NCBI GenBank assembly: GCA_003279105.1
Contig: QCBO01000001.1
Location: 248,001 to 312,000, forward strand
Direction of reading: 5' to 3'
DNA: 64,000 nt
Source: Prochlorococcus sp. AG-347-I19
Lineage (GTDB): Bacteria > Cyanobacteriota > Cyanobacteriia > PCC-6307 > Cyanobiaceae
Part shown: one piece after another, positions 4,484 to 14,434 of the stretch
How the letters are laid out: the number at the start of each line of letters is the position of its first letter
Position numbering within the stretch: position 1 is the first letter of the stretch
Made by a program: the position numbers and the translations under genes
The notes under the pieces: generated by a model
Databases searched by the model: none
What the model was told of the DNA's origin: nothing
The model's input: the letters and a program-made list of their open reading frames with translations, nothing else

Positions 4484-5152
4484 AAAAATTACGCCCAGCC
4501 ATAAAATAACCATTGCTGGAATACTTTGAATTTTTTGTATTGATAAAGAGTTGTTTGATACTTCCTGAATGAAAGAATTATTTTCAAGCAATCCACCAAA
4601 TATTAATCCTATCGAAAGAAAGGTAACACTCCAACCCAGAGAACCTATAAATCTTTTCCCCGATTTAATTTGGGTATAGGTAAGTATTAATGTTGAGATA
4701 GAAAGTAAAAGTCTATTATTAGAGTCTGGACTAATAAATAACAAAATTAAAAATAATAGACCAACAGATATTTTTATTGAAAGATTATCAAATGAAGGGG
4801 TGGTTATTTTTGGCAGAGTATACTGACTTGAATTCTTAGAGTTATTATTTAAATTTTTTATCTTAGATAACAGTGGAAAATTATTATTGGAAAATTGATT
4901 AATTTGTTTTTCTTTTTTTGAGGCACTCACAGCTTCATAGCTTACATTTCCTGATTGCCTAGCTTTCAAACTACCCATGAGTAATTGATCAAAGGAAGAT
5001 TCTATTTTCGCTTTTAAAATTAAATCTTCACCCGCCTCTTTAACTTTGATATCTCTAGCCTTCTGAATATCCTCAAAAGCAGCACCTTCTTTTACACCTA
5101 AAATTTCATAAGGTGATTTTTCGTTATTGTTTTTACTACTGTTTGAATCCAA
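4478..5152 (-). CDS. CPP1-like (DUF3353) J-domain-like membrane protein
   Basis: A 224-residue protein. The N-terminal part ([20 protein letters not shown]) looks like a degenerate J domain without the HPD motif. The C-terminal half, from about residue 125, has three or four transmembrane helices. This matches the CPP1-like family of cyanobacteria and plastids; in plants CPP1 is reported to stabilise protochlorophyllide oxidoreductase and assist import. A membrane chaperone role in pigment or membrane protein biogenesis is an inference. Its 3' end overlaps hslO by 6 bp on the opposite strand. Confidence 0.8.
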
Positions 5153-10792: not shown

Positions 10793-10889
10793 GTAGCAAC
10801 CGCTACCAAAACGTTCAACTTGCGTATAGCAAGCCGCAAATCGACTTAAGCCATGGAACGGGGACTTAAGCGAAACCGGAGCTAAAAAA
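10793..10889 (+). ncRNA. Structured 97-nt leader of a short transcript (possibly Yfr6-like)
   Basis: The leader holds two compact stem-loops: GTAGC-AACC-GCTAC at 10793-10806 and CTTGC-GTATA-GCAAG at 10819-10833. TTGCG (10820-10824) can alternatively pair with CGCAA (10835-10839), so two folds are mutually exclusive. GACTTAAG then occurs twice, 20 bp apart, at 10843 and 10863; its self-complementary CTTAAG core allows the copies to pair. The leader runs straight into a 33-codon ORF and a strong terminator. From memory, the Prochlorococcus short RNA Yfr6 was described with a 33-codon ORF; identity with this locus is unverified. Confidence 0.5.
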
Positions 10890-11434: not shown

Positions 11435-11464
11435 TTTGAAGTTCAACAAAACTGAATAGCCTCT

Positions 11465-11551
11465 GGAGGGGTGGTCGAGTGGTTTAAGGCTCTAGTCTTG
11501 AAAACTAGCGTGTCTGCAAGGGCACCGTGGGTTCGAATCCCACCCCCTCCG
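11465..11551 (+). tRNA. tRNA-Ser(UGA)
   Basis: An 87-nt class II tRNA. The acceptor GGAGGGG (11465-11471) pairs with CCCCTCC (11544-11550), and G11551 is the discriminator. The anticodon stem CTAGT/ACTAG surrounds a loop with TGA. A long variable arm and GTTCGAATC T-loop follow. CCA is not encoded. Its 3' end is the attachment site of the downstream island: CACCCCCTCCGT at 11541-11552 recurs at 14423-14434. Confidence 0.97.
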
Positions 11552-11552
11552 T
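11536..11552 (+). repeat. attL-like direct repeat within the tRNA-Ser 3' end
   Basis: The 17-bp segment AATCCCACCCCCTCCGT covers the T-loop/acceptor end of tRNA-Ser and matches 14418-14434 at 16 of 17 positions (C/A at 11540). Tyrosine recombinases commonly integrate at tRNA 3' ends and leave such copies at both borders. Confidence 0.8.
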
Positions 11553-11694
11553 ATTTAGAAAACCTGCATATGGTGTCATATTCCACCATAAGCAGACAGT
11601 ATTAATTTATCTTAGATATAAAGCCATATTTGAAAGATTTAAGAAACTTAGCCTCGTCATAGCCCTCCATAAACAACCAGATAGGGACAATTAT

Positions 11695-11742
11695 TTACTG
11701 GGGGATTTACTGTGGGATTTGTTAAAAATTACTGGGGGATTG
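11695..11742 (+). repeat. Left tandem repeats, possible integrase arm sites
   Basis: Three copies of TTACTGGGGGATTT-like units lie at 11695-11708, 11707-11720 (one G to T change) and 11729-11742 (last base G). The first two overlap by two bases, giving a 12-bp period. The same unit recurs twice near the right border of the island. G-tract direct repeats just inside tRNA-linked islands often serve as recombinase arm-binding sites; that role is inferred. Confidence 0.75.
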
Positions 11743-11778
11743 AATTCGATCTAAAAGTCGAATTAAAATAATAAAAAA

Positions 11779-12798
11779 TTGGCATTTTTGGTGGCTCAAA
11801 GCAAAAAGATTTCTGAATATAAATTTCCAATAGAATTATTTGTGGTGGGTAACAAATACAGCAGAGATGATATTAATCAAAGATTAGATAAAGGAAGAAT
11901 AGATGGATTTAAAGGTATAACTGAATTTTCAAATTGCTTTGCATTGGTCGTAACTCTCGAAAAAAAAGATAAGCCTAAAAATCAAAAGTATAAAGATTTC
12001 TTTAAAAACAAAAGAGAGTTTTTCTGGGAAAGTCAACAACCAGGAATCACAAATAAATTCGGCTCAACAAATACACCAGAAATGAGCTGCTTACTTAATA
12101 GAGAAAAACCATCAATATTATTTGCAAGAATAATTGACAAGACTAAAGGGAAAACTAATAAATTTATTTATTGTGGAGAAATAGAAGTCGAAAGTTTTGA
12201 TAATGGCGCAAATAATCTCAGACCATTTGGAGTTAAATTTACAACTAAGGAAATACCAAAAGAAATTCCTTCAGATTTATCAGATTTAATAAATTGGAAA
12301 CCTTCAAATAATTCATCTCTTATTGAAGCTGAGAACCTCGCTATAACTCATACAGTAGATAAGGATTCAGATATAAATGAATCTGAAGGTCAGGGGATAT
12401 TAACTAACCAAAAACTTAAAATAGCTATAGAAAATTATGCTATGGAAAAAGCTTTTGAACATTATAAATCTCAGGGCTATGCAACATTTGACGTGTCCAA
12501 TAAAAGAAATTTAGGATACGACATTAGGTGTGAAAGACCAGGATCAACAAAATATGTGGAGGTGAAAGGGAGTCATAAAAGTGGTTGGTGTGTATTAGTG
12601 ACTAAACAAGAAGTTGATAATGCAAAGAAACAACCTGTGGATCTATTTATTGTTAATAAAATAAAATACAGATGGATCGATGAAGAAATTGAATATGAAT
12701 GTTTTGAAGGAGAAATAAGAATTATGTCGCCCTGGAAACCAAATCCAAATAAGTCTTCTCTAAAGGTTATTAATTATAATTTCTGCCCAGATAAATGA
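11779..12798 (+). CDS. DUF3427-like plus DUF3883 nuclease-fold protein, candidate restriction enzyme
   Basis: A 339-residue protein. Residues about 26-175 (NKYSRDDINQ, YKDFFKNKREFFWESQ, ILFARI, FIYCGEI) resemble the DUF3427 domain found at the ends of defence-associated helicases. Residues about 215-330 match DUF3883, a restriction-endonuclease-like fold: Glu223, Gly-Tyr-Asp248, then Glu261-Val-Lys263 and a Gln277 segment, the E/D/ExK constellation of Mrr-like nucleases. I infer a stand-alone DNA-cleaving enzyme that may read modified or foreign DNA. There is no ATG; TTG 11779 is used, with TTG 11788 or GTG 11791 as alternatives. It is first in the island operon and overlaps the next gene by 4 bp (ATGA). 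Confidence 0.7.
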   Translation: MAFLVAQSKKISEYKFPIELFVVGNKYSRDDINQRLDKGRIDGFKGITEFSNCFALVVTLEKKDKPKNQKYKDFFKNKREFFWESQQPGITNKFGSTNTPEMSCLLNREKPSILFARIIDKTKGKTNKFIYCGEIEVESFDNGANNLRPFGVKFTTKEIPKEIPSDLSDLINWKPSNNSSLIEAENLAITHTVDKDSDINESEGQGILTNQKLKIAIENYAMEKAFEHYKSQGYATFDVSNKRNLGYDIRCERPGSTKYVEVKGSHKSGWCVLVTKQEVDNAKKQPVDLFIVNKIKYRWIDEEIEYECFEGEIRIMSPWKPNPNKSSLKVINYNFCPDK

Positions 12799-13199
12799 AA
12801 CGCTTACTACTTGCACTTCTATTATTTTCTAATCCTGCAGTTGCTGAAGAGGATCCTATCTATTACGTCCACGTCAGACCTCCTTCCTCTTACTCAGGCA
12901 CAATTGGTCCAAATGGTTTTTTTCACTATTTCACTAATTCTGCTGTAAGTGCATCTGCTGACGGATGTGATATGCGAATTGATGGGGCTTGTTTTATAAA
13001 AACTGATATTCCTGCAAAAATTATTAGGAAAGGAATATTGAAAGCTGGTTCTAAATTTTGGTGTTCAGAAGATCATATACAAGCTCGAAAAAAAGCCGAC
13101 CCAAAACCTGTACTTCGGCGTGGTGGTGGTTATATGGATTATGGATATGGAATCTGTACTAAAAATGGTTGGGTAACTAAAAGTTTGGACGATTTATAA
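12795..13199 (+). CDS. Signal-peptide protein with four cysteines, island cargo
   Basis: A 134-residue protein starting MKRLLLALLLFSNPAVAEE, a clean signal peptide with an AVA cleavage site, so it is exported. The mature part has four Cys (in GCDM, ACFI, WCSE and ICTK), enough for two disulfides, and an RRGGGYMDYGYG stretch. No known domain is recognised. The start overlaps the nuclease stop (ATGA). The stop codon abuts the ATG of the next gene, which begins with nearly the same 20 bases. Confidence 0.65.
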   Translation: MKRLLLALLLFSNPAVAEEDPIYYVHVRPPSSYSGTIGPNGFFHYFTNSAVSASADGCDMRIDGACFIKTDIPAKIIRKGILKAGSKFWCSEDHIQARKKADPKPVLRRGGGYMDYGYGICTKNGWVTKSLDDL

Positions 13200-13700
13200 A
13201 TGAAACGCTTACTATTCGCAGCGATAATATTATTTTTACCCTTTCCTTCTTTTGCCGGTTTCCCAGAAGGAGAAAGTGGATATGATCTTAAAAAAATTGA
13301 AGAGTCATTCAGATTACCCTGTGATGAGATAGGTAATGATGATTGCATTGCCAGAGCTTTTGGTATGGGAGCTTGCACTTGGATGTTTGAGATAAATAAA
13401 GACAAAGAACCTGATGAAGCTTTAAGGATTGCTGATCAAGTATTAATTGCTCTTTTAAAGGGAAATGAACTTGAAATAAACGATATTTTTGAGAAAAATG
13501 GCTCAATTAAAAAAAATATAAAAAAAGAAGCCATCTACAGAATTAATTTCTGCAAGGAGGAAACAAAAAAAGCTATTCCAAAATTAATTAAAAAATTACC
13601 CGAGGGTGTTGTATTAGATGAAGAGAGAATTAATAATTTAACTAGTGTATTTCCTCTCCAATACCTTACTATGTTTGAACAGATGAAAAAGGGATTTTAA
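13200..13700 (+). CDS. Second signal-peptide protein of the island
   Basis: A 166-residue protein starting MKRLLFAAIILFLPFPSFAG, a second signal peptide. The mature part is helical, with Cys in LPCDEI, DDCIAR, GACTWM and NFCKEE, again four. No domain is recognised. It begins directly after the preceding stop and ends in TAATG, overlapping the GIY-YIG gene by one base. The paired Cys content and shared leader suggest the two secreted proteins act together or belong to a family that reuses the same export leader. Confidence 0.65.
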   Translation: MKRLLFAAIILFLPFPSFAGFPEGESGYDLKKIEESFRLPCDEIGNDDCIARAFGMGACTWMFEINKDKEPDEALRIADQVLIALLKGNELEINDIFEKNGSIKKNIKKEAIYRINFCKEETKKAIPKLIKKLPEGVVLDEERINNLTSVFPLQYLTMFEQMKKGF

Positions 13701-14311
13701 TGGAAGGGACAGTATATGTATTAACAAATCCTGCAATGCCAGATTTGGTAAAAATTGGAAAAACCACTAGAGATGTTCAGCTAAGACTTGCTGATTTATA
13801 TACAACCGGAGTTCCATACCCCTTTGAATGTGAATATGCGGCAAAAGTAACAGACTTAGATAAGACTGAAAAAGCATTTCACATCGCATTTAAAGATAAA
13901 AGAGTAAACCATAAAAGGGAATTTTTTAAAATTGACCCTATACAAGCCATTGCAGTCTTAGAGTTAATGGCAATTGAAGATATGACGCCAGTAGTTCAAA
14001 AAGAAGCTGAAAATGTTGACATTGAAGTTAAAGCATCAGTAGAAAAATTTAAAAAAGATAGATTGCCTGTTGTTAATTACTTTGAAATGGGTTTAAAAGT
14101 CGGAGATGTATTTACCTATGAATTTGATCAAAATATAACTTGCAAAGTAAAAGATAATAGAAAGGTTGAATATGAAGGACAAGATTATTATTTAACTGGA
14201 TTAACGAAAAAATTAATGGATACAGATAAAGCAATTAGAGGTAGTAAATACTGGTATTGCAAAGGGAAAAATATCGTAGATATCTATAACGAAACCTATA
14301 TCAAAGATTAA
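13700..14311 (+). CDS. GIY-YIG (T5orf172-like) protein with RAMA-like C-terminal domain
   Basis: A 203-residue protein. Residues 4-80 form a T5orf172/Mug113-type GIY-YIG nuclease domain: VYVLTN at 5-10, VKIGKTTRDVQLRL at 17-30 with Arg29, a Glu in DKTEKAFHIAF and REFFKI. Residues about 130-203 (GLKVGDVFTYEF, VEYEGQDYYLTGLTKKL, RGSKYWYCKGKN) resemble RAMA or DUF4357 domains that accompany restriction enzymes and are thought to read modified DNA. I infer a DNA-acting enzyme. It is last in the island operon and coupled to the gene before it by TAATG. Confidence 0.65.
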   Translation: MEGTVYVLTNPAMPDLVKIGKTTRDVQLRLADLYTTGVPYPFECEYAAKVTDLDKTEKAFHIAFKDKRVNHKREFFKIDPIQAIAVLELMAIEDMTPVVQKEAENVDIEVKASVEKFKKDRLPVVNYFEMGLKVGDVFTYEFDQNITCKVKDNRKVEYEGQDYYLTGLTKKLMDTDKAIRGSKYWYCKGKNIVDIYNETYIKD

Positions 14312-14328
14312 TTTTTAAGGGATAAAAT

Positions 14329-14354
14329 TTACTGGGGGATTTACTGGGGGATTT
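14329..14354 (+). repeat. Right tandem repeats of the island
   Basis: Two perfect TTACTGGGGGATTT units lie at 14329-14342 and 14341-14354, overlapping by two bases exactly as in the left cluster. The orientation is the same at both ends. They sit 18 bp after the last island gene and 64 bp before the tRNA-end copy, the expected place for arm-type sites. Confidence 0.75.
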
Positions 14355-14417: not shown

Positions 14418-14434
14418 AATCACACCCCCTCCGT
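14418..14434 (+). repeat. attR-like copy of the tRNA-Ser 3' end
   Basis: AATCACACCCCCTCCGT matches the tRNA-Ser end at 11536-11552 with one mismatch, including a perfect 12-bp CACCCCCTCCGT. No tRNA precedes it, so it is a border duplication and not a second gene. Confidence 0.8.

What the first reader, a model, noticed from the sequence alone, without database searches (positions are those of the whole stretch)
11779..14311. Candidate undescribed defence cassette: two nuclease/reader proteins flanking two exported proteins
A tight four-gene operon (overlaps of 4, 0 and 1 bases) encodes a DUF3427-like/DUF3883 protein with an E/D/ExK nuclease constellation and a GIY-YIG protein whose tail resembles RAMA or DUF4357 domains. 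Both are architectures associated with modified-DNA restriction. Between them are two signal-peptide proteins with four cysteines each. Pairing cytoplasmic nucleases with exported proteins is not a defence layout I recognise. It sits in a mobile island.
Basis: inference. Interest (0 to 1): 0.78.

Follow-up and report, generated by a model that had tools for sequence, protein, structure and literature searches.

The report
Integrase-free mobile cassette carrying restriction-like genes
In a marine Prochlorococcus, four unrelated small genes, two of them restriction-nuclease-like, ride inside a 2.9-kb mobile DNA cassette that has the landing sites of a tRNA-targeting element but no recombinase of its own, which suggests how these stripped-down cells might swap defence genes cheaply.

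Summary
The four ORFs, overlaps and domains are as described. They are not a conserved four-gene system: of 300 family genomes only the window's own holds relatives of both nuclease-like genes. The island is an exact 2,882-bp insertion at tRNA-Ser(TGA). Of 60 resolved loci (window included) 31 are empty and 29 hold DNA. The element has no integrase. Its ends carry 12-bp direct iterons, two plus one spaced at the tRNA end, two at the far end. Integrase-bearing elements at other tRNA genes of the genus have the same geometry, so I read the iterons as recombinase arm sites. Elements with 75-90% identical ends carry other cargo or none; I saw no integrase in any window-type element examined. Best reading: a non-autonomous, tycheposon-like cassette moved in trans, with restriction-type cargo. 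The GIY-YIG protein has a modelled C-terminal domain like those of CcrM and MPND and matches PADLOC candidate PDC-S57. Both exported proteins begin in a dispersed repeat (ATGAAACGCTTACTA) found at stop codons of many genes. Defence and mobility are inferred, not shown.

The parts
11464..11552 (+). tRNA-Ser(TGA), the target gene, left intact by the insertion
11536..11552 (+). attL core (tRNA 3' end), copied 16 of 17 at the right end
   Evidence: D14; empty sites
11693..11741 (+). Left iterons (TTACTGGGGGATT type): two in tandem (period 12), a third after a gap; read as arm-type recombinase sites
   Evidence: only such pair found in the 64-kb window; same layout in integrase-bearing elements
11779..12798 (+). 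P0001, 339 aa, DUF3427 part + NOV_C (restriction-like E/D/ExK constellation)
12795..12809 (+). Copy of the dispersed boundary repeat ATGAAACGCTTACTA overlapping the stop codon of P0001; serves as the start of P0002
   Evidence: (D3)
12795..13199 (+). P0002, 134 aa, exported-looking small protein, four cysteines
   Evidence: signal peptide by eye
13200..13214 (+). Second copy of the boundary repeat, directly after the stop codon of P0002; serves as the start of P0003
   Evidence: (D3)
13200..13700 (+). P0003, 166 aa, exported-looking protein, four cysteines; relatives in 12 other genomes of 300, in 7 of them long and without inner stops; remnant in the L075 element at the same tRNA
   Evidence: signal peptide by eye
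13700..14311 (+). P0004, 203 aa, GIY-YIG (T5orf172) domain with a CcrM/MPND-like C-terminal domain; PADLOC PDC-S57
14327..14354 (+). Right iterons, two in tandem, same sequence as at the left end
14418..14434 (+). attR core (AATCACACCCCCTCCGT)
   Evidence: similar element-side sequence before the core in L127, L131, L143 and L170
14507..14707 (+). Flanking host ORF (MSKGF...), the anchor of the empty-site test; not part of the element

Best explanation
The four genes are the cargo of a non-autonomous integrative element of 2,882 bp that entered tRNA-Ser(TGA) by site-specific recombination. Each end carries a copy of the tRNA 3' end and, inside it, clustered 12-bp iterons that I take to be the arm-type binding sites of a tyrosine recombinase. 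A recombinase encoded by another element, not identified for this iteron family, would excise and insert it in trans. Shown: the insertion with empty sites in relatives, shared ends with different cargo, no integrase in the element nor in the other window-type elements examined, and the same end geometry in integrase-bearing elements. Inferred: arm-site function, mobility in trans, and function of the cargo. For the cargo, the likeliest reading is that P0004 (GIY-YIG joined to a RAMA-like DNA reader) and P0001 (DUF3427 part joined to a PD-(D/E)XK-like NOV_C domain) are restriction-type proteins that recognise and cut foreign, perhaps modified, DNA, each able to act alone. P0002 and P0003 are exported passengers without a known link to them. 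Rough split: vehicle 0.85, restriction-type role of the cargo 0.6.
For: Empty versus filled sites: 31 and 29 of 60, joined at the tRNA core. The window's iteron pair is the only one found in 64 kb; 0 of 200 shuffled 3-kb controls and 0 of 1,450 resampled end pairs gave one, against 8 of 29 filled sites with separate matching clusters at both ends. Ten of 13 integrase loci with a tRNA in view have such a pair, 115-150 bp from the tRNA end and 66-91 bp from the distal core; the window's left distance is 141 bp. Same-site helper and mini pairs, by eye: L126 (integrase) with L157 and the left end of L158; L244 (integrase, tRNA off the contig) with the right end of L114. Window-type left ends occur in 15 of 266 genomes, the window's included; no integrase-sized ORF in those listed and no integrase match in the eight loci. 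Left ends are 76-90% and right ends 75-87% identical to the window in L127, L131, L143 and L170, with no cargo match beyond stretches of 18-36 bases. Cargo: PDC-S57 2.5e-73; fold matches; nuclease-type neighbours of some P0004 relatives; an EcoRV-type system and two type I restriction systems in other filled sites at this tRNA.
Against: No integrase with the window's iteron type was found, so the helper is hypothetical. Of 29 filled sites 21 fail the automated test for separate clusters at both ends, through decay, nesting or another origin. Three integrase loci with a tRNA in view (L225, L235, L241) show no pair, and L239, L240 and L242 among the ten have identical integrases, so the ten are not independent. 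I recognised restriction- or nuclease-like cargo in only 5 of 29 filled sites; TM2-like and unknown genes are at least as common. The GIY-YIG fold matches score only Z 5.6-6.7, and pTM 0.52 leaves the two domains' arrangement open. No solved structure matches P0001 by sequence and its fold stayed untested. The sites were chosen mostly by flank score, so 31 to 29 is not a population frequency.
Confidence: 0.72

Rival explanations
1. A dead relic: a full tycheposon-like element at this tRNA lost its integrase in place and is now immobile.
For: No integrase in the element; the only PF00589 match in the 96%-complete genome lies elsewhere, among what look like core genes, and no L126-type integrase is found there. 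Some copies look decayed (L140, L143).
Against: Window-type left ends occur in 15 of 266 genomes with different cargo and no integrase seen; full iteron sets persist at both ends in the window and in L280.
Confidence: 0.15
2. One reading: a cohesive four-gene defence operon in which exported proteins work with two cytoplasmic nucleases.
For: Tight packing on one strand; two restriction-type proteins in one element.
Against: Separate distributions; only the window's genome of 300 holds both P0001 and P0004; the starts of the two exported genes are a dispersed repeat that often abuts stop codons, which accounts for the packing.
Confidence: 0.07
3. Gene content at the site changes by homologous recombination in shared tRNA, flank or repeat sequence rather than by site-specific recombination.
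For: The flanks are conserved, and the boundary repeat gives short shared stretches at gene boundaries.
Against: Insertions begin at the tRNA 3' end while host flanks differ; conserved arm-like geometry at both ends would have no role.
Confidence: 0.08

Closest known systems
Tycheposons (Prochlorococcus integrative elements; defining paper not held, recalled, and as described in passages of PMC10872708)
   Same: Insertion at a tRNA gene in Prochlorococcus, variable cargo; end geometry like that of integrase-bearing elements of the genus.
   Different: No tyrosine recombinase; 2.9 kb against the 4-200 kb stated in PMC10872708.
Hitcher elements, MITEs and integrase-less cassette arrays (CALIN), as reviewed in PMC11389934 (passages)
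   Same: Recombination sites without the enzyme; thought to be moved in trans.
   Different: Sites are tRNA att cores plus iterons of a presumed tyrosine recombinase, not transposon ends or attC sites.
PADLOC PDC-S57 (candidate defence family)
   Same: P0004 matches PDLC05041 over 2-200 at 244 bits.
   Different: A candidate label only; no paper holding the term was found.
NOV_C/DUF3883 and DUF3427 proteins; HmaA (PADLOC)
   Same: NOV_C and DUF3427 above Pfam cut-off; C-terminal part of HmaA at 6.6e-7.
   Different: P0001 has no helicase; 339 aa against a profile of 1,176.
CcrM C-terminal domain and the MPND domain (RAMA by recall)
   Same: Fold of P0004 121-203: Z 11.2, rmsd 1.9 over 81 residues (CcrM); Z 8.8, rmsd 2.8 over 80 (MPND-DNA complex).
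   Different: Fused to a GIY-YIG domain; 14% identity; binding of modified DNA not tested; SAND domains also match at Z 5.0-5.8.

Membership tests
Tycheposon | Integration at a tRNA gene with a copied tRNA 3' end | tested here: met
Tycheposon | Element-encoded tyrosine recombinase | tested here: not met
   No recombinase among the cargo; one PF00589 match in the genome, outside the window; no L126-type integrase in G000. Hence not filed as a tycheposon.
Tycheposon | Other hallmark genes (recalled: replication and satellite genes) | not tested
   The defining paper is not held
PDC-S57 (PADLOC candidate) | Full-length match to the family profile | tested here: met
   2-200 of 203, 244 bits; no curated cut-off is given
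PDC-S57 (PADLOC candidate) | Anti-phage activity | not testable with these tools
   needs a plaque assay
GIY-YIG nuclease (T5orf172) | Domain above cut-off with conserved R and E | tested here: met
GIY-YIG nuclease (T5orf172) | GIY-YIG fold | tested here: inconclusive
   Slx1 and HIGLE are the best matches of 1-106, but at Z 5.6-6.7, below the level the tool calls clear; pLDDT block means 75-91 over 1-100
RAMA domain | Fold of the C-terminal domain like CcrM C-terminus and MPND | tested here: met
   pLDDT block means 91-98 for 131-200; Z 11.2 and 8.8. The RAMA label of these is recalled.
RAMA domain | Match to a RAMA sequence profile | tested here: inconclusive
   None listed by Pfam up to E 1, with filters that drop weak matches
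NOV_C/DUF3883 | Profile match above cut-off and conserved acidic/Lys residues | tested here: met
NOV_C/DUF3883 | PD-(D/E)XK fold | tested here: inconclusive
   Model failed, mean pLDDT 34

The most novel reading that the evidence does not exclude
Prochlorococcus islands hold a two-level cassette system. Level one: integrase-free elements bounded by tRNA cores and arm-type iterons, served in trans by recombinases of other elements, each iteron family belonging to its own integrase. Level two: inside them, genes are strung together at a dispersed repeat (ATGAAACGCTTACTACTTGCACCGCT) that marks gene 3' ends and is reused as the start of signal-peptide genes, acting as a junction for gene-by-gene shuffling. 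The system would be integron-like in effect but unrelated in machinery, and would deliver restriction genes to cells that usually carry none or one.
Probability: 0.2. Interest if true: 0.85.

Novelty: new variant of a known kind. Interest (0 to 1): 0.58.

Why it matters
Prochlorococcus genomes are reported to carry typically 0 to 1 restriction-modification systems, many none (PMC8262939, passages). Small cassettes that lack even a recombinase would let a streamlined population share defence genes at little cost. Iteron pairs give a sequence signature by which integrase-less elements, which integrase-based searches would miss, can be listed, and they make a direct prediction: the integrase of L126 should bind TGTGTTTGGGA and move L157. 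The boundary repeat is a separate puzzle that can be tested on existing genomes.

Tried and rejected
Four-gene unit: rejected on distribution. Integrase remnant in ORF 11527-11754: no family match; its stretch overlaps the tRNA and the element's left end. Window iteron pair in viral contigs: 0. P0004 in viral contigs by single sequence: none; by alignment: 20 relatives, 30-46% identical in the best segment. P0001 in viral contigs: none. Solved structures by sequence: nothing convincing. P0001 structure: uninformative. Search for an integrase beside the window-type left end in eight further loci: none. The first anchor script used a wrong frame and was redone. Three filled sites under 400 bp (L143, L150, L165) were dropped from the both-end iteron count, because the two ends overlap there. 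Literature: the listings, and the passages read, showed no paper that describes iteron-bounded integrase-less elements or this repeat in Prochlorococcus; Hackl et al. 2023 and Coleman et al. 2006, the likeliest places, are not held, so prior notice there is possible. I recall a 48-bp island repeat (PRE1) in the latter; whether it is the same was not checked.
Full report
Where it is. The window is G000:C1:248001-312000 of a 1.46-Mb genome. The four named contigs that share its tandem iteron are all Prochlorococcus, so I take the host as Prochlorococcus; the genome itself is unnamed.

Four + strand ORFs lie at 11779-12798, 12795-13199, 13200-13700 and 13700-14311 with overlaps of 4, 0 and 1 bases. 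P0001 has part of DUF3427 and NOV_C; E218, D248, E261 and K263 are invariant in it and three relatives of 33-77% identity. P0004 has T5orf172/MUG113 and matches PADLOC PDC-S57 at 244 bits; R29, E57 and R73-E74-F75-F76 are invariant in 16 sequences. A model made with 14 sequences (mean pLDDT 86, pTM 0.52) matches Slx1 GIY-YIG domains at 1-106 (Z 5.6-6.4) and HIGLE (6.7), and, at 121-203, the C-terminal domain of CcrM (Z 11.2, rmsd 1.9, 81 residues) and the MPND domain (Z 8.8 and 8.5). Z under 8 may mean only a common arrangement, by the tool's own note. In plain Foldseek order CcrM and Slx1 also lead, but no E-value is below 0.001. That MPND's domain is a RAMA domain and may read N6-methyladenine is recalled.

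The unit does not hold. In draws of 300 family genomes, matches were P0001 6, P0002 6, P0003 13 and P0004 20, the window's own genome included in each. Only G000 has both P0001 and P0004. Two of the six P0001 matches (G031, G002) and three of the 20 P0004 matches (G032, G072, G205) are partial and weak. Other pairs share a genome but not a place: G294 (P0001, P0002, P0003), G211 (P0001, P0003), G282 (P0002, P0003), and G270 (P0004 and a broken P0003 remnant). In the loci around P0003 relatives L056-L064, no other window ORF of the first 26 kb was matched.

The element. tRNA-Ser(TGA) is at 11464-11552. Its last 17 bases recur at 14418-14434 with one mismatch. I located the flanking ORF in the window, L075 and 60 fetched loci, 62 in all; 60 also had the tRNA in view (L111 and L145 did not and were dropped). 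The tRNA-to-ORF distance is 71-87 bp in 31 and 127-12,050 bp in 29. The empty sites read straight from the tRNA core into sequence like the window's right flank. The 60 loci were taken, mostly by score, from 99 matching genomes of 121 searched.

The iterons. TTACTGGGGGATT-type repeats lie at 11693-11741 (two in tandem, one after a gap) and 14327-14354 (two in tandem). A detector of tandem 10-mers of period 10-13 that recur 150 bp to 20 kb away found this as the only pair in the window and none in 200 shuffled 3-kb pieces. The same run gave pairs in 6 of 20 loci around relatives (L065, L066, L070, L072, L073, L075). Other filled sites have other iteron words in a like layout. A relaxed test gave 11 of 29 filled sites against 0 of 1,450 Markov-resampled controls; three of the 11 (L143, L150, L165) are under 400 bp, so the two ends overlap and one cluster was counted twice. 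That leaves 8: window, L075, L126, L131, L151, L157, L158 and L159. Twenty-one filled sites fail.

Link to integrases. The 429-aa ORF of L126 is a phage-integrase relative (PF00589 26.6 bits, just under the 27.1 cut-off). Relatives occur in 20 of 200 genus genomes, not in G000. Of 20 fetched loci, 13 had a tRNA in view and 10 of these showed a matching iteron pair; L225, L235 and L241 did not. L239, L240 and L242 have identical integrases, so the ten stand for eight. In the ten, iterons start 115-150 bp inside the tRNA end and 66-91 bp before the distal core, and in nine of ten the integrase gene lies 345-619 bp from the distal iterons, in L233 1,484 bp. The printed ends of six of them show the layout. 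At tRNA-Ser(TGA) itself, L126 shares its iteron word with integrase-free L157 and the left end of L158, and L244 (integrase; same flank, tRNA off the contig) shares its right end by eye with integrase-free L114. I infer arm-type sites; no binding was shown.

The window's family. A 190-bp left-end query matched 15 of 266 genus genomes, the window's included and the last two weakly. Four such elements, L127, L131, L143 and L170, have left ends 76-90% and right ends 75-87% identical to the window's; the compared right pieces hold some flank bases. They share no cargo with it beyond stretches of 18-36 bases, some of them outside the element, and L143 has no cargo. L280 (G095) is the closest parallel: intact tRNA, iterons at 2501, 2513 and 2535 and at 4625 and 4637, and four genes, three with exported-looking starts by eye; the family searches put no relative of P0001-P0004 there. 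No integrase match was found in the eight loci (L283 and L284 without a tRNA match, L285 without the anchor), and one search lists no ORF over 141 aa in L124, L127, L131, L140, L143 and L146.

The cargo. At this tRNA I recognised restriction- or nuclease-type cargo in 5 of 29 filled sites: the window; L075 (D12 methylase and EcoRV-type endonuclease); L157 (GIY-YIG); L151 and L159 (type I systems). Six element copies carry a TM2-like 75-aa gene (L124, L127, L131, L140, L146, L170; 20.1 bits, under cut-off), and two more are in L281 and L282, so the site is no dedicated defence island. Not all cargo proteins were given to profile searches. Of 16 family loci of P0004 relatives listed, profiles confirm a nuclease-type neighbour in three: L023 (DUF6998, unknown function in Pfam, PADLOC mREase_II 7.7e-10), L022/L073 (Mrr_cat_2 with helicase, inside an iteron pair) and L032 (HNH, one ORF away). 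Among viral loci, L250 has a methylase and a ResIII protein and L251 a PDDEXK_11 protein next door; part of that listing was cut. Look-alike neighbours in L025 and L033 had no Pfam match.

The boundary repeat. P0002 and P0003 both start with ATGAAACGCTTACTA. AAATGAAACGCTTACTA with up to one mismatch occurs in 92 of 101 genus genomes, often in several copies, while the reversed control gave 3 single hits. Of 115 distinct copies in loci at hand (partly fetched for this repeat), 85 have the stop codon of an ORF of 40 or more codons within 12 bases, mostly at +1 (39) or -3 (21), against 117 of 2,000 random ATGs and 75 of 1,000 ORF-starting ATGs; only 36 begin an ORF of 50 or more codons.

Mechanism and limits. 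Best reading: an integrase-free, trans-mobilised element with restriction-type cargo. A relic is the main rival. The helper is unknown, the fold of P0001 is untested, and neither movement nor defence has been shown. Papers: passages only of PMC10872708, PMC11389934, PMC8262939, PMC7523629, PMC3478194, PMC2518516 and PMC6563490.

Noticed in passing
window 12795-12809 and 13200-13214; copies in loci L056-L231: Dispersed repeat ATGAAACGCTTACTA(CTTGCACCGCT) at stop codons of many genes in Prochlorococcus; 36 of 115 copies start an ORF of 50 or more codons, most with a signal-peptide-like start by eye, the rest do not.
   Followed up: partly
L113, L117, L119, L132, L143, L184, L187-L189, L193: Several copies of that repeat that begin no long ORF run into a second conserved stretch, TTGACAGTCGATCTAAAATAAGGGGCAATTAGCTCC, which looks by eye like a hairpin followed by T's.
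   Followed up: no
window 10809-10870: Glutamine-II riboswitch aptamer, 69 bits, upstream of tRNA-Ser and outside the element.
   Followed up: no
L230 10879-11501; L236 7851-8639; L158: Iteron clusters only 222-788 bp apart sit next to integrase-bearing elements or to each other, like arrays of tiny units.
   Followed up: no
L065, L066, L070, L072: Iteron pairs of other sequence also lie around or near relatives of P0001 and P0002 in other genomes.
   Followed up: no
L107 4489-5658 (G000:C1:390160): The only PF00589 match in the window's genome, 389 aa, lies among genes that look like core genes by eye; whether it is conserved or serves these elements is untested.
   Followed up: no
L073 1866-5722: Another iteron-bounded stretch without a visible integrase carries a P0004 relative beside a 977-aa Mrr/helicase restriction-like protein.
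   Followed up: partly
L026 2100-3368; L067 3618-4988: In other genera a P0004 relative and a P0001 relative each directly follow an ORF that may be an integrase (L026 PF00589 0.0014, below cut-off; L067 no Pfam match).
   Followed up: partly
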